From the NCBI RefSeq assembly GCF_023115465.1, contig NZ_CP096034.1, positions 3,534,001-3,598,000 of the forward strand: DNA of 64,000 nt, in the 5' to 3' direction. This document shows positions 23,265-54,393 of the stretch, in pieces. The DNA is from Gottfriedia acidiceleris (GTDB lineage: Bacteria > Bacillota > Bacilli > Bacillales > Bacillaceae_G). Numbering within the stretch: position 1 is the first letter of the stretch; the number at the start of each line of letters is the position of its first letter. The position numbers and the translations under genes are program-made. The notes below the pieces were generated by a model, which made no database searches, was not told where the DNA came from, and worked only from the letters and a program-made list of their open reading frames with translations.

Positions 23265-23524
23265 ATATATAAGCTATGAAGAAGAGTAGTACACAGATTT
23301 AGCATGTTAAGAGAGCTTGTGGATGGTGAAAACAAGTCATGCTCCCTGTCGAATGGACTTCTGAGCTTCGAACCGAACATATAGTATAAGTAGGCTTCGA
23401 CGTAACTCAAACGATAGATGAGAGCATGATTTCATGCATGAGTGATTCCTTATTTGGAATAACTAGAGTGGTACCGCGGTTTAATCGTCTCTATTGTAAT
23501 AGAGAGATTACGCCGCTTTTTTAT
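23265..23524 (+). promoter_or_regulatory. T-box leader of trpS (Trp-specific)
   Basis: A tRNA-sensing leader. The T-box core AGAGTGGTACCGCGG is at 23465-23479; its GG-ACC-containing bulge pairs with the uncharged tRNA acceptor end. The terminator follows, with GCGG...CCGC and TCTCTATT/AATAGAGA arms and a T6 tail (to 23524). The Stem I region contains ATGGACTT at about 23344, where TGG would be the tryptophan specifier followed by a purine, matching the downstream gene. Uncharged tRNA-Trp should stabilise the antiterminator and turn trpS on. Confidence 0.93.
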
Positions 23525-41514: not shown

Positions 41515-43287
41515 ATGCAAATTGAATCAATATATCATCAGCCATATGATCAATATGCTTTTTCAATAGATGATAAAACCTATCGTTTAAGAATTCGAAC
41601 AAAAAAAGGTGATTGCACAGAGATTATTTTTTATTTCGGAGATCCATTTAAATATAATGATTCAGGTTGGCAAATTGAATCCCCCCTTACCATGTATCTT
41701 GCATTTTCCACAGAACTATTCGACTACTGGGAAGTAAATGTAATCCCTCCAAATAAACGAATGAAATATCAATTTCTTTTAAAAAATGAGCAAGATTCTC
41801 TATTTTATGGTGAGGGCGGATTTTCAAACAATTTTAACCCTAATGATCAGTCAAACTGTTTTACATTGCCATTTCTTCATAAAAATAATCTAATATCACC
41901 TCCAAGTTGGATTAATGATACGATTTGGTATCAAATTTTCCCCGATCGATTTGCAAGTGGCAATAACAAGAATAATCCTATCAATTCGACTCCGTGGGGC
42001 TCTACTTTACCAACCAGTTCTAGCTATTTCGGTGGTGATCTAGAAGGTGTTATTCAAAAAATAGATTATCTTAAAAATTTAGGAATATCCGGTATTTATT
42101 TAACTCCAATTTTTGAAGCAAATTCAAATCATAAATATAATACAATCAATTATTTTAGAATAGATCCTACCTTTGGAGATGAAAAAGTCCTAAAAACATT
42201 AATCGAAAAATGTCATGAAAACAATATCCGAGTAATGCTTGATGCAGTATTTAACCATACAAGTGCATCCTTCCCTCCATTTCAAGACGCATTACAAAAC
42301 GGAAGGGAATCCGCCTTTTTTGACTGGTTTCACTTTTTTAAAGATGAACAGAACAATACAGCGTATGAAACTTTTTCTTTTGTAAAGGAAATGCCAAAAC
42401 TAAATACAGAAAATAAAGAAGTACAGAATTTTTTATTAGAAATAGGTTCTTATTGGATAAAAGAATTTAATATAGATGGTTGGCGTTTAGATGTAGCAAA
42501 CGAAATCGATCATTATTTTTGGAAACTATTTAATAAAAAAATGAAGGAACTAAAAAATGATTTGTTTATTGTAGGTGAGATTTGGCATCATGCAATGCCA
42601 TGGCTAAGAGGTGACGAATTCGATTCTGTTATGAATTATCCTCTTATGAAATCACTTTTTGCTTATTTTGGGTATCAATCAATTTCAAAGATACAATTTC
42701 AATATTCGATTAACGATTTAATAGCTCAATATCCATTACCTGTAATCAAATCACTCTTCAATGTATTAGGTTCACATGATACACCAAGAATAATGACACA
42801 ATGTAATCAAAACGAAAAACGAGTGGTACTATTATATGTCTTTTTATTTACTTTCTTTGGAACTCCATGTATCTACTACGGAGATGAAATTGGTTTACAA
42901 GGTGGAAATGACCCTGAATGCCGAAGCTGTATGATTTGGGACAAATCTAAATATAATTTAAGTATCTTTGATTCAATAAAAAAATTGATTTCGATAAGAA
43001 AAAAATACTCAGTTTTAGAAAATGACGGTGAGTTTAATTGGGTACAAACTGAACAGCCCGACATTGTTATGTATGAAAGAAAGAATAATCAATTTCATTT
43101 TTTTATCATAATTAATAACTCAAGCGAAAAACAGACAGTTAAAGTACCGATAAATTTAAGTAAGAAAAGAATTACAAATAGATGGAATGGCGAACAGTTT
43201 GCAACTGAATCTGATTCAATAGCTGTTGATTTACTAGAGACCGACTTTTTAATCTTGCAAGTAGAAGATACAGACTTATTTAATTAG
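41515..43287 (+). CDS. Intracellular GH13 alpha-glycosidase (neopullulanase/cyclomaltodextrinase type)
   Basis: 590 residues, no signal peptide. N-terminal CBM34-like domain (about 1-125), then a GH13 barrel. All active-site elements are intact: DAVFNH (243-248), nucleophile Asp326 in GWRLDVANE, acid/base Glu355 in FIVGEIWH and Asp422 in LGSHDTPRI. The N domain and GEIWH favour the GH13_20 group, which degrades maltodextrins, cyclodextrins or pullulan inside the cell. GGTGGG precedes the ATG. Opposite strand to the degenerate GH13 gene, sharing the 214-base operator region. Confidence 0.9.
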   Translation: MQIESIYHQPYDQYAFSIDDKTYRLRIRTKKGDCTEIIFYFGDPFKYNDSGWQIESPLTMYLAFSTELFDYWEVNVIPPNKRMKYQFLLKNEQDSLFYGEGGFSNNFNPNDQSNCFTLPFLHKNNLISPPSWINDTIWYQIFPDRFASGNNKNNPINSTPWGSTLPTSSSYFGGDLEGVIQKIDYLKNLGISGIYLTPIFEANSNHKYNTINYFRIDPTFGDEKVLKTLIEKCHENNIRVMLDAVFNHTSASFPPFQDALQNGRESAFFDWFHFFKDEQNNTAYETFSFVKEMPKLNTENKEVQNFLLEIGSYWIKEFNIDGWRLDVANEIDHYFWKLFNKKMKELKNDLFIVGEIWHHAMPWLRGDEFDSVMNYPLMKSLFAYFGYQSISKIQFQYSINDLIAQYPLPVIKSLFNVLGSHDTPRIMTQCNQNEKRVVLLYVFLFTFFGTPCIYYGDEIGLQGGNDPECRSCMIWDKSKYNLSIFDSIKKLISIRKKYSVLENDGEFNWVQTEQPDIVMYERKNNQFHFFIIINNSSEKQTVKVPINLSKKRITNRWNGEQFATESDSIAVDLLETDFLILQVEDTDLFN

Positions 43288-43313: not shown

Positions 43314-43345
43314 AAATACAGACTCATTTACGTGAGTCTGTATTT
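43314..43345 (+). terminator. Proximal copy of the duplicated GH13-gene terminator
   Basis: Hairpin with arms AAATACAGACTC and GAGTCTGTATTT. An identical 32-bp copy lies at 43863-43894; the element at 43346-43862 separates them. Confidence 0.9.
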
Positions 43346-43862
43346 CATGCTGTTGAAAAACTACCTTGTCAATTAATTATCAAATTTTCGTAAAAGGAGT
43401 AGAGTGATGTTGATTTCCACTACATGGTGCTCGCTTTCCATGGGGCGAGATTCTTTAGCCTCCTCGGCAAGCCTGTGGGGTCTCAGCCTTCCCGCTAATC
43501 CCATAGGAGTCGATCACCCCTTTCGTTCCAATCAACTTATTCAATCAAAAAAGTCTGTAATAAATACTAGTCAAATAGCCTTTACTTAGAGTAATCTAAC
43601 TGTTGTATATTAATCAGCTTGTAGATCAATTAATATCGAACAATTATTAAATCAAACTTTAAAATTTGTTTCCTAAAAATTGCCCATAATATTTTTAACT
43701 TCTAAAAAAAATCATTATTAGTGTTATTGGAATAATGAAATTGCTCAAACACTTTTACATTTAAAACCATTAAAGATCATCCAAAAAATGCTAATTTATC
43801 ATTATTAAATGTTCATTTAAAATCCGTTTTCCCTATTGACGACTTTATATTTCAACACTCTG
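43346..43862 (+). mobile_element. Terminator-inserted ~517-bp element, copy 1
   Basis: Non-coding element. Ends are CATGCTGTTGAAA and (inverted) CAGAGTGTTGAAA, matching at 10 of 13 positions. A GC-rich core at about 43405-43540 carries the GTTGATTTCC...CAATCAAC dispersed repeat; the AT-rich remainder has no reading frame over 61 codons. It is flanked by perfect 32-bp direct repeats, each the whole terminator hairpin of the upstream gene. The far copy alone keeps the full T-run, so insertion happened inside the terminator. Copy 2 (inverted) lies beyond glnK. No transposase is encoded; it would have to be moved in trans. Confidence 0.85.
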
Positions 43863-43899
43863 AAATACAGACTCATTTACGTGAGTCTGTATTTTTATT
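43863..43899 (+). terminator. Distal copy of the duplicated terminator
   Basis: Same 32-bp hairpin as 43314-43345, followed by T5. It ends 16 bases before the TnrA box. Confidence 0.9.
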
Positions 43900-43914
43900 C
43901 ACTTATTTACGATA

Positions 43915-43963
43915 TGTTAGATTTTCTAACAAATAAGATATATGTTAGCGTTTTCATTATAAT
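43915..43963 (+). promoter_or_regulatory. amtB promoter with perfect TnrA box
   Basis: TGTTAGATTTTCTAACA (43915-43931) fits TGTNANAWWWTNTNACA fully. The -10 TATAAT is at 43958-43963; the start site would be near 43970, placing the box centre near -47. That is the activating position for TnrA, as at B. subtilis nrgA. Confidence 0.85.
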
Positions 43964-44046
43964 TTTATATATTTTTTTGGGATTTTCGTGAAATTAATAT
44001 TGAATTTTGCATATATTCTGAATATGATAACTTATATAACAATTAA

Positions 44047-44063
44047 TGTTATAAAAACTAACA
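44047..44063 (+). promoter_or_regulatory. Second TnrA/GlnR-like box in the amtB leader
   Basis: TGTTATAAAAACTAACA, one position off consensus, 21 bases before the chosen amtB ATG and downstream of the predicted start site. Confidence 0.5.
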
Positions 44064-44084
44064 TTAAAGAAATGGGGAATGAAG

Positions 44085-45320
44085 ATGAACGGTATTCAAG
44101 CTGCGGATAGTGTATTTCTTTTTATTTCAACTGTTTTAGTCATGATTATGACACCTGGTTTGGCACTTTTTTACGGCGGTATGGTTAAAAGTAAAAACGT
44201 ATTAAGTACTACAATGCACAGCTATTCTGCTATGGCAATCGTATCAATCCAGTGGGTGTTAATTGGTTACTCTTTAGCATTCGGTCCAGATTTTCATCAT
44301 TTGATTGGTAACTTTTCTTGGGCAGCATTAAAGGATGTTGGTTTTACTCCAAATGATAACTACAGCGCAACAGTCCCTCATAATCTTTTCATGATGTTTC
44401 AACTGATGTTTGCAATTTTAACCCCTGCTCTTATTTCAGGTGCCTTCGCTGAGCGCATGAAATTTTCAGCATTTCTATTATTTACTCTTTTATGGACAAC
44501 ATTTGTTTACGATCCATTAGCTCACTGGGTTTGGGGAGTGGATGGTTGGCTTCGAAATCTAGGTGCTTTAGACTTCGCTGGCGGAACAGTTGTTCATATT
44601 TCCTCCGGTGTTTCAGGGTTAGTTCTGGCTCTACTTCTTGGCAAAAGACGAGATTTCGGATCTACCTCACCTCATCATTTACCACTAACTGTATTAGGTG
44701 CTGGACTATTATGGTTTGGGTGGTTCGGATTTAATGTCGGAAGTGCCTTAACATTAAATGATGTGGCATTAACTGCATTCATTAATACAAATACCGCGGC
44801 TGCTGCAGCTTCAGTTGCTTGGGTACTAGTGGAATGGTACGTAAATAAAAAACCTACTATTTTAGGTGGAGTTAGTGGTGCCGTAGCTGGATTAGTTGCA
44901 ATTACACCTGCTTGCGGATTCGTCACACCTCTCTCATCAATAGTGATTGGATTTTTAGGTGGAGTCATCTGCTTTTTAGCAGTAACATACTTAAAATACA
45001 AATTTGGATATGACGATGCTTTAGACGCATTCGGTTGTCACGGAATCGGTGGGACATGGGGAGCTATTGCAACAGGATTATTCGCCACAAAATCAGTAAA
45101 TAGCGCTGGTGCAAACGGACTTTTTTACGGTGACATATCACTTCTTTGGAAACAACTACTCGCTATCGGAGCAACCTATCTTTTTGCAGGAGTTATTACC
45201 TTTTTAATTGTGAAAGTTATAGGCTTTTTCATCCGAATTCGTGTCGATCAAGAGGAAGAAAACCTTGGCCTTGACTTAAGCATACACGGAGAAAAAGCAT
45301 ATCACGACGCAAGTATATAA
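44085..45320 (+). CDS. amtB: Ammonium transporter AmtB (NrgA)
   Basis: 411 residues, eleven membrane helices. Conducts ammonium/ammonia into the cell under nitrogen limitation. The conserved pore His pair is recognisable in GGTVVHISSGVSGLV and in DAFGCHGIGGTWGA. I start at the ATG at 44085, 6 bases after GGGGA; the ATG at 44079 is too close. It is followed after 12 bases by glnK in an operon, flanked by inverted copies of the terminator-inserted element. Confidence 0.95.
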   Translation: MNGIQAADSVFLFISTVLVMIMTPGLALFYGGMVKSKNVLSTTMHSYSAMAIVSIQWVLIGYSLAFGPDFHHLIGNFSWAALKDVGFTPNDNYSATVPHNLFMMFQLMFAILTPALISGAFAERMKFSAFLLFTLLWTTFVYDPLAHWVWGVDGWLRNLGALDFAGGTVVHISSGVSGLVLALLLGKRRDFGSTSPHHLPLTVLGAGLLWFGWFGFNVGSALTLNDVALTAFINTNTAAAAASVAWVLVEWYVNKKPTILGGVSGAVAGLVAITPACGFVTPLSSIVIGFLGGVICFLAVTYLKYKFGYDDALDAFGCHGIGGTWGAIATGLFATKSVNSAGANGLFYGDISLLWKQLLAIGATYLFAGVITFLIVKVIGFFIRIRVDQEEENLGLDLSIHGEKAYHDASI

Positions 45321-45332
45321 GGAGGGATAAAA

Positions 45333-45695
45333 ATGACTGCAAAATTAACAAAAATTGAAATCATTACTCGACCAGATAAATTTGATGTTTTAAAAGATGC
45401 ACTTTCAAAAGTAGGAATCACAGGAATGACCGTAACGAACGTTTTAGGATGTGGAATGCAATCAGGCTATACGGAAGTGTATCGAGGAAAAAAACGAACA
45501 ATCAATTTACATGAAAAAATAAAAGTTGAAATAGTCGTATGTGACGTTCCTGTTCAAGCTGTAATTGATGAAGCAAAAAGAGTGTTAAAAACAGGAAAAC
45601 CTGGGGATGGAAAAATATTTGTATACCCTATTGAAAACGCAATTAAAATCCGCACAGGAGAAGAAGGAAGAGACGCATTACAAAACGATTATTAG
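45333..45695 (+). CDS. glnK: PII-type signal protein GlnK (NrgB)
   Basis: 120 residues. Trimeric PII protein that docks on AmtB and, in B. subtilis, interacts with TnrA. The T-loop spans about residues 37-55 (GCGMQSGYTEVYRGKKR), with Tyr50 near the usual modification site. Bacillus PII is not known to be uridylylated. The B-loop KTGKPGDGKIF binds ATP. GGAGGG lies 6 bases before the ATG. Confidence 0.95.
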   Translation: MTAKLTKIEIITRPDKFDVLKDALSKVGITGMTVTNVLGCGMQSGYTEVYRGKKRTINLHEKIKVEIVVCDVPVQAVIDEAKRVLKTGKPGDGKIFVYPIENAIKIRTGEEGRDALQNDY

Positions 45696-45702
45696 ATTTT
45701 TA

Positions 45703-45733
45703 AAACCTAGTCATTCTATATGGCTAGGTTTTC
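45703..45733 (+). terminator. Proximal copy of the duplicated glnK terminator
   Basis: Hairpin arms AAAACCTAG and CTAGGTTTT. An identical 31-bp copy stands at 46449-46479. Confidence 0.9.
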
Positions 45734-46448
45734 AGAGTGTTGAAATATAAAGTCGTCAATAGGGAAAACGGACTTTAAATGCACATTTAATCATGATACA
45801 TTAGCATTTTTCGAATGATCTTTAATGGTTTTAAATGTAAATATGTTTGAGCAATTTCATGATTCCAATAACACTAATAATGATTTTTTAGAAGTTAATA
45901 ATATTATGGACTTTTTTTAGGAAAACAAATTCGATTGTTTAGTTTAATAATTGTACGATATTAATTGATCTACAAGCTGATTAATATACAACAGTTAGAT
46001 TACTCTAAGTAAAGGCTATTTGACTAGTATTTATTGCAGACTTTTTTTGATTGAATAAGTTGATTGGAACGGAGGGGTGATCGACTCCTATGGGATTAGC
46101 GGGAAGGCTGAGACCCCGCAGGCTCGCCTAGGCCGCTGAATAACTCTATGATTTTTGAAAAAGTTCAATTCCCTAAAATTTCCATCCCCACTTTTGTCTC
46201 AAAAATGGGTTAAAACTTAATGTGTCATCCCCACTTTATCTATAAAAATCGAGGTTTTTATGGGAATTGATTTTTCGTAAAAAGCAAAATTTGATCAAAA
46301 TTTACTTTTTCAGTGGCCTCGGCTCGCCGAGGAGGCTAAAGAATCTCGCCCCATGGAAAGCGAGCACCCTGTAGTGGAAATCAACATCACTTTACTCCTT
46401 TTACGAATATTTGATAATTAATTGACAAGGTAGTTTTTCAACAGCATG
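45734..46448 (-). mobile_element. Terminator-inserted element, copy 2 (inverted, carries a nested insert)
   Basis: Reverse-complement counterpart of 43346-43862, about nine in ten bases alike by eye. It begins CAGAGTGTTGAAA and ends CAACAGCATG, exactly the same termini as copy 1. Of its 715 bases, 192 are a nested insert and 8 the insert's target duplication, leaving 515, against 517 in copy 1. It is flanked by perfect 31-bp duplicates of the glnK terminator hairpin, a different hairpin from that at copy 1. The distal copy keeps the T6 tail. Confidence 0.85.
46129..46320. mobile_element. 192-bp MITE-like insert inside copy 2
   Basis: Terminal inverted repeats TAGGCCGCTGAATAA (46129) and, read inward from 46320, GAGGCCACTGAAAAA: 12 of 15 positions match. 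Flanking GGCTCGCC occurs at 46121-46128 and 46321-46328, an 8-bp target duplication; copy 1 shows the unsplit site. No reading frame. The inverted ends differ from those of the IS at 52821, so that element is not its parent. Confidence 0.85.
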
Positions 46449-46481
46449 AAAACCTAGTCATTCTATATGGCTAGGTTTTTT
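46449..46481 (+). terminator. Distal copy of the duplicated glnK terminator
   Basis: Same 31-bp hairpin as 45703-45733, with a T6 tail. Confidence 0.9.
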
Positions 46482-52800: not shown

Positions 52801-52820
52801 AAAAAAGCGTTGCAGGAGCA
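52801..52820 (+). terminator. Left half of the split gerPF-addA terminator
   Basis: AAAAAAGCGTTGCAGGAGCA. The right half lies at 54374-54394 (TGCAGGAGCATGGCTTTTT). Joined, they give an AAAAAGC...GCTTTTT hairpin with TGC/GCA inner pairs and an AGGA loop, usable both ways. Confidence 0.75.
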
Positions 52821-54373
52821 TCGCTTCAGATTGTCGACAAAAGGGGTTCGGAATGCTCTTATTCCGAACCCCTTTGTCATTTTTTTATGTTTTGAGTGAG
52901 GATTGGCTTCTATTATCCTCATTTTTTATGCTGTTTTTGGACCACTCCATGTCCAGGTGACCATCTTTTTTAAATTCATGGATGCAAAAGTAAGCATCGC
53001 CTGCATCGACAATTTTTTAAGTCCCCTTAAAGTTGTCCAACGCATACCATGCTTTTCTTTTGCGTCTGCGAAAACGCGCTCTATTATTTTTCGTTTCGCA
53101 TAGATCGGTTTTACTTCTTCATGATGACGAAGATGTGCTACTTCTTCGATGTATTGTTGCCAAATACAAATATGACGAGTCACCACTTTTTTGATGATCT
53201 TTACTCTCCGTACATTGCGCTAAATAAAGGCATGTCGTACAAATCTTTTAGGTGATTTGTACTCACGATAGCCTTCTTTCGTAGTTGTCGAATAAGCCAA
53301 AACTTCTCCTGCAGGACAAAGATAACAATCATAGTGCTCATCATAAACATACTAGTGTTTTCGAAAAAAACCTTCTTTTGTTCGTGGTCGTGTGTATGGT
53401 AAAACTGGTGTCATTTCATTATCAATCAAGAATTTCGCAATAGCTGGTGTTTTGTATCCTGCGTCTGCTGCAACCGCAGTAGGTTTTCCGACTTTCTTAA
53501 TCACTTCTTTTACTAATGGTTCCAACATTTGACTATCATGTATGTTCCCCGGAGTCACTATACTTCCTAAGACAAAGCCGTTAGGGTCTGAAGCTGCATG
53601 AAAAGAATAGGCAAATTGTTTGGTCAGTTCATCTTTTACATAGTAGCCACTTTCTGGATCAGTTGTACTCTCTTTGATTGCTTTTTCTTCTTCTTTCTCA
53701 GGGGGAAACAGCTTTTTTCCATGGTCCTCACGTTCATCATTAATTTCTTTTTGTAGCTGTTCCTGATACGCTCGGGTCTCTTTACGAAAAACTTTCTTTT
53801 CAAACTTATGCTTATTTGCACTCGCTATCACATTGGTAGAATCAATGAAAACGTGTTCGGAACTAATTAATTTTTTCTCCAGCTAATTTTAAAATACGAT
53901 AGAAAATCTGTTCAAATAAATCGGAATCTTGAAAGCGACGCTCATAGTTTTTACTAAAGGTCGAAAATTGAGGTGCTTTATCGTAAAAGCCATAGCCTAA
54001 AAACCAACGATAAGCCATGTTTGTTTCCACTTCTTCAATCGTTTCGCATGGAACGAATACCAAATGTATATTGAATAAAGGTTAATTTTATTAAAATAAC
54101 AGGATCGATGCTTGGGCGACCCACAGGAGAATACATGTCTTTCACCAAATCATAAAATAAAAGAAAAATCAATTGATACTTCTATTTTTCGAACTAAGTG
54201 ATTTTCCCGTACAAGTTGATCAAGTGTGATCATTTCTAATTGATCTCTTTGAATTGAATGATGTTTTGAAAGCATAGATCTCACCTCTAGAAAATTTTAC
54301 TAATTCTATTTTAAAATAAAAAAGACTGTAGGCAAACTCGATATTCATCGAGTTTGTCTACAGTCTGAAGCGA
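52821..54373 (-). mobile_element. Decayed IS1182-family insertion sequence, 1553 bp
   Basis: Inverted ends TCGCTTCAGATTGTCGACAAA (52821) and, read inward from 54373, TCGCTTCAGACTGTAGACAAA: 19 of 21 match. TGCAGGAGCA directly flanks both ends, a 10-bp target duplication made of the terminator loop and inner arms. Inside, each end also folds into its own hairpin (52842-52876 and 54323-54367). It carries one transposase pseudogene on the minus strand. Confidence 0.88.
52926..54275 (-). pseudogene. IS1182-family transposase, frameshifted
   Basis: DDE transposase remnant in several pieces. Start ATG 54275 (MLSKHHSIQRDQLEMITLDQ), with GAGGTGAGA upstream. A frame change near 54063 leads to the AYRWFLGYG...FSTFSKNYERRF segment, then a change near 53870 to the catalytic FIDSTNV region. 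A third in-frame stop lies near 53350, another near 53225, and the C terminus (IIERVFADAKEKHGMRW) ends at 52926. At least two frameshifts and two stops: inactive unless complemented. Confidence 0.9.
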
Positions 54374-54393
54374 TGCAGGAGCATGGCTTTTTC

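What the first reader, a model, noticed from the sequence alone, without database searches (positions are those of the whole stretch)
43314..46481. A mobile element that inserts into terminators and duplicates the whole hairpin
Two copies of a ~515-517-bp non-coding element (43346-43862 and, inverted, 45734-46448) share exact termini (CATGCTGTTGAAA / CAGAGTGTTGAAA inward). Copy 1 is flanked by identical 32-bp repeats (43314-43345 and 43863-43894), copy 2 by identical 31-bp repeats (45703-45733 and 46449-46479). Each repeat is the full hairpin of the upstream gene's rho-independent terminator, and the two hairpins are unrelated, so they are host target sequences. In both cases only the distal hairpin keeps the long T-run. 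Target duplications of 31-32 bp covering a complete structure are unusual. The effect is harmless to the host: both sides keep a working terminator hairpin. The B. cereus-group bcr1 element I know makes short TTTAT duplications, so this seems different. I know of a report that the IS1182-family element IS1272 targets inverted-repeat structures, which may be a mechanistic parallel. No enzyme is encoded.
Basis: partly seen in the sequence, partly recalled or inferred. Interest (0 to 1): 0.88.

Follow-up and report, generated by a model that had tools for sequence, protein, structure and literature searches.

The report
Jumping DNA that doubles transcription terminators
This bacterium carries dozens of copies of a small jumping DNA that inserts at the foot of the hairpin ending a gene's message and leaves a full copy of that hairpin on both sides, as do enzyme-encoding relatives of one transposon family in distant bacteria.

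Summary
The host genome has 45 tested copies with two ends; in 43 the flanks match (2 of 1,980 mispaired controls do), and 31 of 38 clean duplications (15-37 bp) are centred exactly on a hairpin. At the glnB-like terminator 10 of 11 congeners show one hairpin and no element. The 1.7-kb IS1182-family element inside six copies is not the parent; it duplicates an 8-bp loop. The likely enzyme is another IS1182-family branch: a congener holds an intact 1,536-bp element with closely similar ends and an exact 33-bp hairpin duplication, and 10 of 12 hand-picked plasmid relatives (Bacillota, Pseudomonadota, Fusobacteriota) do the same. Best model: strand transfer at the two 5' feet of a cruciform, drawn by Wan et al. 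2017 as a hypothetical pathway for IS1272, which itself removes the hairpin. A new variant of a known kind: hairpin targeting was known; ten searches of the held papers found no case of whole-terminator duplication as a rule. That this transposase moves the element, and the cruciform, are inferred.

The parts
41515..43287 (+). gene upstream of site 1 (590-aa ORF; looks like an alpha-amylase-family glycosidase, name by eye, not searched)
43314..43345 (+). proximal copy of the 32-bp terminator hairpin
43346..43862 (+). element copy 1, 517 bp, non-autonomous
43401..43545 (+). internal structured motif shared with other genomes of the order (42 predicted pairs, 12 with compensatory changes in a 10-sequence alignment)
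43863..43894 (+). distal copy of the 32-bp terminator hairpin
44079..45320 (+). gene between the two sites (413-aa ORF, AmtB-like by eye); used to find orthologous sites
45333..45695 (+). gene upstream of site 2 (120-aa ORF, GlnB-like by eye)
45702..45732 (+). proximal copy of the 31-bp terminator hairpin
45733..46448 (-). element copy 2, 716 bp including the nested mini-element
46129..46320 (-). nested 192-bp mini-element with ends like those of the loop-duplicating IS1182 group (GAGGCCACTGAAAAAG type), flanked by an identical 8-bp repeat at 46121-46128 and 46321-46328
   Evidence: compare
46449..46479 (+). distal copy of the 31-bp terminator hairpin
52827..54367 (-). decayed IS1182-family element (transposase fragments on the - strand, stop codons inside); ends CAGATTGTCGACAAA / CAGACTGTAGACAAAC
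52805..52826 (+). hairpin repeat on the left of the decayed IS1182 element (22 bp, 2 mismatches to the right one)
54368..54389 (+). hairpin repeat on the right of the decayed IS1182 element

Best explanation
The two copies belong to a MITE-like non-autonomous family moved by a DDE transposase of one branch of the IS1182 family ('branch B' here). The transposase joins the two 3' ends of the element to the two strands of a terminator palindrome, at the 5' foot of the hairpin on each strand. In linear DNA these points are 15-37 bp apart, varying with the hairpin; in an extruded cruciform they lie next to each other at the four-way junction. Gap repair then copies the hairpin on both sides, so the gene keeps a hairpin on its own side and the original hairpin with its T-run lies beyond the element. 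Shown: dispersed copies, hairpin-centred duplication, unoccupied sites with one hairpin, and like ends with the same kind of duplication in an intact relative. Inferred: that this transposase moves the element, that the target is a cruciform rather than linear DNA, and that termination is preserved.
For: Own genome: 43 of 45 two-ended copies with duplicated flanks, control 2 of 1,980; a stem ending exactly at the element boundary in 44 of 45 (left) and 39 of 45 (right) against 96 of 20,000 random positions. Of 38 clean duplications 31 are centred exactly on the dyad; pairing is 0.79-0.97 at the eight positions inside the boundary and 0.26-0.55 at the six outside, chance 0.38. An ORF end within 120 nt of the hairpin in 36 of 45, against 297 of 1,924 random positions. 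Congeners: 15 of 21 two-ended copies duplicated, control 0 of 420. Unoccupied sites. Enzyme: L215, a 490-aa ORF matching IS1182 family NF033551 (291.3 bits summed over the frame, cut-off 270), 1,536-bp element, exact 33-bp hairpin duplication; its terminal 30 bases agree with those of copy 1 at 24 of 30 (left) and 25 of 30 (right), counted by eye. Six of six copies of a 1,563-bp IS in another genus have exact 20-32 bp hairpin duplications. 10 of 12 plasmid relatives at 30% identity or more likewise; they fall in one clade, support 0.849.
Against: No intact branch-B transposase was found in this genome: the NF033551 search gave the six branch-A genes, the decayed gene in the window, whose ends differ from the element's, and one short fragment. 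Inside the terminal 30 bases the element and the L215 IS show no long match. Some duplications stop short of the end of pairing (e.g. C1:673737, read). In 6 of 21 congeneric copies the flanks score under 15; three of these score 13-14 and look like diverged copies, three score 5-9. Cruciform extrusion was not tested at all.
Confidence: 0.8

Rival explanations
1. Same transposase, but the target is linear double-stranded DNA: a transposase dimer reads the two arms of the inverted repeat and makes an unusually wide staggered cut.
For: Symmetry about the dyad is equally expected. Duplication lengths are more frequent near 19-22 and 29-37 bp, close to two and three helical turns. Another IS1182 branch leaves mostly 8-9 bp duplications, an ordinary stagger for linear DNA.
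Against: Lengths spread from 15 to 37 bp with the hairpin and the boundary follows the end of pairing. A fixed protein ruler should not track stem length.
Confidence: 0.2
2. The 2.2-kb copies with an IS1182-family transposase are the autonomous parents and the 515-bp copies are their internal deletion derivatives.
For: They share both ends and carry an intact 496-codon frame; I held this reading at first.
Against: The 1.7-kb core is itself an IS, inserted at one site of the element in both orientations (2 and 4) between 11-12 bp repeats, 8 bp of which are target if the first four belong to the IS tip (my reading); cores are 99.5-100% identical but the surrounding element parts only 77.5-95%. 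Its relatives duplicate hairpin loops, not whole hairpins.
Confidence: 0.07
3. The hairpins are part of the element (it carries terminators at both ends) rather than target sequence.
For: A hairpin is at nearly every boundary.
Against: Hairpins differ between copies (mispaired flanks match in 2 of 1,980), and unoccupied orthologous sites carry a like hairpin.
Confidence: 0.02
4. The element inserted beside hairpins in another way, and the second copy arose later by hairpin-templated repair or recombination.
For: One pair of copies differs by a double compensatory change (C1:4034340); site 1 relatives show extra hairpins.
Against: Exact flush boundaries on both sides in unrelated hosts, also in intact IS, point to the insertion step itself.
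Confidence: 0.05

Closest known systems
IS1182 family, ISBspe1 and related elements (branch B here)
   Same: DDE transposase of the IS1182 family; ends of type CAGGCTGTTGAGAAA; whole-hairpin duplication, seen here for the annotated ISBspe1-family copy on pBpOF4-01 (20 bp) and others
   Different: The window copies encode no transposase and are in high copy number; the ends of type CATGCTGTTGAAA match the L215 subgroup best among those examined
IS1272 / TnSha1 (IS1182 family, staphylococci)
   Same: Targets hairpins, terminators among them, without sequence preference (PMC5678879, PMC4923244, passages read)
   Different: Reported to remove all or part of the hairpin and leave no duplication; not placed in my tree
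Loop-duplicating IS1182 group ('branch A': the IS inside six copies; L099-L178)
   Same: IS1182 family; inserts in terminator-like hairpins
   Different: Duplicates mostly 8-9 bp at the loop; ends GAGG(C/G)CACTGAAAAAG
Wan et al. 2017 model, pathways b and c
   Same: Pathway b predicts whole stem-loop duplication, pathway c loop duplication, both from a cruciform (part 1 of the discussion read)
   Different: Drawn as alternatives in a figure; the parts I read give no natural example
bcr1 of the Bacillus cereus group
   Same: Non-coding mobile-looking repeat in Bacilli

Membership tests
MITE (non-autonomous DNA transposon) | Short, multi-copy, no transposase, defined ends | tested here: met
   35 of the 45 two-ended copies are 172-523 bp; 3 more of 664-716 bp hold a nested mini-element, 6 of about 2.2 kb a nested IS, 1 of 1,517 bp another gene; no transposase ORF in the window copies
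MITE (non-autonomous DNA transposon) | Ends shared with an autonomous element | tested here: met
   L215 IS in a congener: terminal 30 bases agree at 24 and 25 of 30. The element's own two ends are only a short, imperfect inverted repeat
MITE (non-autonomous DNA transposon) | Mobilised in trans by that transposase | not testable with these tools
   needs a transposition assay
IS1182 family (for the probable enzyme) | IS1182-type DDE transposase | tested here: met
   G011:C26 passes the NF033551 cut-off with its neighbours in the frame (291.3 against 270 bits)
IS1182 family (for the probable enzyme) | Palindrome targeting in some members | tested here: met
IS1272-type stem-loop replacement | Loss of the target hairpin, no duplication | tested here: not met
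   hairpin present on both sides
   duplications 15-37 bp
Group IIC intron (terminator-seeking retroelement; recalled) | Group II intron RNA core or reverse transcriptase | tested here: not met
   Window at Rfam gathering score: only a T-box elsewhere; element 1 at E up to 1: only a sub-threshold miRNA model; no ORF of RT size in the window copies

The most novel reading that the evidence does not exclude
The IS1182 family is a set of transposases that share recognition of a cruciform but differ, branch by branch, in where on it they join the DNA: at the stem's 5' feet (whole hairpin duplicated, branch B), at the loop (8-9 bp duplicated, branch A), or so that the hairpin is lost (IS1272). Branch B thereby homes to terminators across several phyla while leaving a terminator hairpin for each neighbouring gene.
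Probability: 0.5. Interest if true: 0.78.

Novelty: new variant of a known kind. Interest (0 to 1): 0.64.

Why it matters
Target duplications of a transposon are normally short and of fixed length, set by the enzyme (established knowledge). Here the length follows the target's own fold, a strong natural hint of structure-directed DNA joining by a DDE transposase. Because many events can be read in one genome, the question whether terminators extrude as cruciforms in living cells becomes testable. It also explains a class of long, palindromic direct repeats, and gives a transposon aimed at some of the least harmful places in a bacterial genome.

Tried and rejected
Rejected: the 2.2-kb copies as parents (searches suggested it; 33, 37, 97 overturned it). 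An autonomous partner at the unpaired ends of this genome: solo ends were read inward, ORFs were listed for four such regions without a transposase recognised by eye, and the IS1182 model found none there. The first duplication scan of 80 relatives used GTTGAAA ends and found none, because those relatives have other ends; repeated with the right ends. Exact repeats around the internal motif in 27 loci of other genomes: L070 and L073 (same genus) gave the hairpin type, and L082, from another family of the order, has a 24-bp hairpin on both sides with one mismatch; most of the other loci gave nothing. Compensatory change between the two hairpins is weak evidence: 21 ungapped diverged pairs with 37 differences; 2 base pairs compensated, 7 changed on one side but still paired, 6 broken (of 66 copies 31 identical, 10 gapped and 4 poorly aligned ones were set aside). 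A first tree included one plasmid ORF out of frame (L272), dropped. The ten paper searches listed no paper that I recognised as reporting whole-terminator duplication; I looked inside ten papers, mostly at passages. The Siguier et al. review that mentions palindromic targets is known to me only through the two IS1272 papers; a related review that I asked for was not held. From memory, unverified: ISfinder gives IS1182 duplications of 0 to about 60 bp, so specialists may know of such repeats.

Dropped rows: two of 47 paired copies (C1:409730, C1:600090) lost their left end; the remaining solo ends were not counted; one search scored 40 of 181 first-look candidates; at two copies (C1:3387734, C1:3627495) one end was set by BLAST or by hand. 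Of 80 branch-A loci 22 lacked room or an end. In one search, 15 loci were run and 7 gave no credible ends; six further fetched loci (L222, L223, L224, L226, L227, L228) were not run. The 17 plasmid loci were chosen by hand from the listed hits.
Full report
WHAT IS THERE. The window holds two copies of one element. Copy 1 is 517 bp (43346-43862) between identical 32-bp repeats; copy 2 lies inverted at 45733-46448 between identical 31-bp repeats. Each repeat is a hairpin just after a gene. Copy 2 is 716 bp because it contains a nested 192-bp mini-element (46129-46320) with an 8-bp duplication.

HOW MANY, AND IS IT CHANCE. The genome (4.69 Mb, one contig) gave 47 alignments to copy 1 when 40 of 181 candidates were scored, and 46 and 55 matches to the two end motifs with up to 3 mismatches, against 0 and 1 for the reversed patterns. 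I paired ends into 47 copies, dropped two that had lost an end, and tested 45: 35 of 172-523 bp, 3 of 664-716 bp, 1 of 1,517 bp and 6 of about 2.2 kb. In 43 of 45 the two flanks align with score 15 or more, against 2 of 1,980 mispaired flanks; the two misses are C1:2797522 (14) and C1:4109572 (11). A stem ends exactly at the left boundary in 44 of 45 and at the right boundary in 39 of 45, against 96 of 20,000 random positions. Among 38 ungapped duplications with at most two mismatches, lengths run from 15 to 37 bp, and 31 of 38 are centred exactly on the dyad of the hairpin. Base pairing is 79-97% at the eight positions inside the boundary and 26-55% at the six outside, where 38% is expected. 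So the duplicated unit is the hairpin. An ORF of 80 codons or more ends within 120 nt of the hairpin in 36 of 45 copies (median 18 nt), against 297 of 1,924 random positions; such ORFs lie on either side of the element.

OTHER SPECIES AND UNOCCUPIED SITES. In four congeneric genomes 24 loci were examined; 21 have both ends and 15 of these have duplicated flanks, against 0 of 420 mispairings. Orthologous sites were found through the gene between the two copies. At the glnB-like terminator, 10 of 11 congeners show one hairpin and no element end in the 150 nt displayed; the eleventh (G010, L255) has an element end at the same point. At the other site six of eleven congeners (L254, L255, L257-L260) show a single terminator hairpin. 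Four (L250, L252, L253, L256) and this genome show an additional degenerate palindrome upstream, in L252 128 bp away; one (L251) shows two full hairpins 141 bp apart with sequence between them that looks by eye like a decayed element. That goes partly against a clean reading of site 1 and may mark older insertions. Six genomes of other genera have different sequences there and do not bear on the question.

WHICH ENZYME. Six copies of about 2.2 kb carry an intact IS1182-family frame, which at first looked like the parent. It is not. The 1.7-kb core has its own ends (GAGGCCACTGAAAAAG), is inserted at one internal site in both orientations, is 99.5-100% identical between copies while the element around it is 77.5-95% identical, and has its own short repeat of 11-12 bp, or 8 bp if the IS tip is discounted. 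Relatives in named genomes do the same at terminators: of 80 loci (the best of 247), 58 had both ends and room, 52 of these an exact 7-13 bp duplication (42 of them 8 or 9 bp), and in 35 of the 52 the duplicated stretch is flanked by a stem, against 224 of 2,652 mispaired controls. This group duplicates the loop.

The right kind of enzyme is in another branch of the same family. A congener (L215) has a 1,536-bp element with an intact 490-aa frame, an exact 33-bp hairpin duplication, and ends that agree with copy 1 at 24 and 25 of the terminal 30 bases. A genome of another genus has six copies of a 1,563-bp relative, all six with exact hairpin duplications of 20-32 bp; its gene lies in two frames. 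The window itself holds a decayed member at 52827-54367 with a 22-bp hairpin repeat (two mismatches). Seven other loci tried gave no credible ends. Of 17 plasmid loci picked by hand from the hits, the 12 with at least 30% identity gave 10 with whole-hairpin duplications (Bacillus pumilus, Brevibacillus, Alkalihalophilus ISBspe1, B. subtilis, two Rhizobium, Sutcliffiella, Sphingobium, Cetobacterium, Vibrio; 17-30 bp), one without (Geobacillus) and one unresolved next to a second IS1182 gene (Lysinibacillus); the five below 28.2% identity gave none. In a tree of 30 transposases the nine whole-hairpin duplicators included, with the Lysinibacillus one, form one clade (support 0.849), apart from 15 loop duplicators and five distant ones. 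Sampling was by similarity to one member of each group, so the clades are partly built in; IS1272 is not in the tree.

HOW IT PROBABLY WORKS. A DDE transposase makes a duplication whose length equals the distance between its two joining points (established). Here that distance varies with the target's stem. In a cruciform the two 5' feet of the hairpins are neighbours at the junction whatever the stem length, so one enzyme could produce all observed lengths. Wan et al. (PMC5678879; abstract, passages, section 24 and part 1 of the discussion read) drew this as pathway b, with loop duplication as pathway c, while arguing that IS1272 itself removes the hairpin. Furi et al. (PMC4923244, passages read) report terminators among IS1272/TnSha1 targets, with partial deletion of the hairpin. 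A 2025 paper (PMC12056078, passages read) says little information is available on these elements. The window family and its relatives look like natural cases of pathways b and c. The cruciform is inferred, and a linear-palindrome model remains possible.

NOVELTY. Hairpin targeting by IS1182-family members is known. The ten searches of the held library listed nothing that I recognised as whole-terminator duplication as the regular outcome, as a high-copy non-autonomous family of this kind, or as branch-specific joining points. ISfinder and the main reviews were not available; from memory ISfinder allows long duplications in this family. I rate it a new variant of a known kind.

Noticed in passing
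G000:C1:3349794-3351310 (L059): A 1,517-bp copy carries a complete 300-aa ORF (EamA/DMT-type permease by eye, not searched) between the two halves of the element and is flanked by a 31-bp hairpin repeat with 2 mismatches: apparent gene capture.
   Followed up: partly
window 43401-43545; alignment A1 of 10 genomes: The core of the element is a ~125-nt motif. 38 of 60 genomes searched (own included) match the element, the distant ones over the motif only. It shows strong covariation (12 of 42 pairs changed on both sides, 0 of 500 shuffles as high) and no Rfam match at gathering score. Function unknown.
   Followed up: partly
L082 (G038, another family of the order), 1200-1223 and 1668-1691: A motif-bearing stretch of about 444 bp lies between two 24-bp hairpins that differ at one base, with other ends (CAGTTTGTG / CAGGGAAGT): probably a further element of the hairpin-duplicating kind.
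   Followed up: partly
six 2.2-kb copies and C1:3579733, 3915508, 3726348 in G000; L156, L168, L174: The internal hairpin of the element is itself a repeated target of the loop-duplicating IS1182 group: six full IS and three mini-elements at one site in this genome, in both orientations; three relatives elsewhere sit in the same motif by eye.
   Followed up: yes
G000 duplications: Duplication lengths are uneven, about 19-22 and 25-37 bp with few between, near two and three helical turns; may only reflect stem lengths.
   Followed up: partly
G000:C1:4034340-4034845 (L025): The two hairpin copies differ by one double compensatory change that keeps a 15-pair stem.
   Followed up: partly
L238 and C1:179705; L243 and C1:1182795; L237 and C1:4086220: Closely similar hairpins are occupied in two species, by old shared or repeated insertions; neighbouring genes were not compared.
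   Followed up: no
L209-L214: Six copies of an IS1182-family element have the transposase gene in two overlapping frames with equal scores; programmed frameshift or a mobile broken gene.
   Followed up: no
window 23267-23495: T-box leader, the only Rfam match in the window at gathering score.
   Followed up: no
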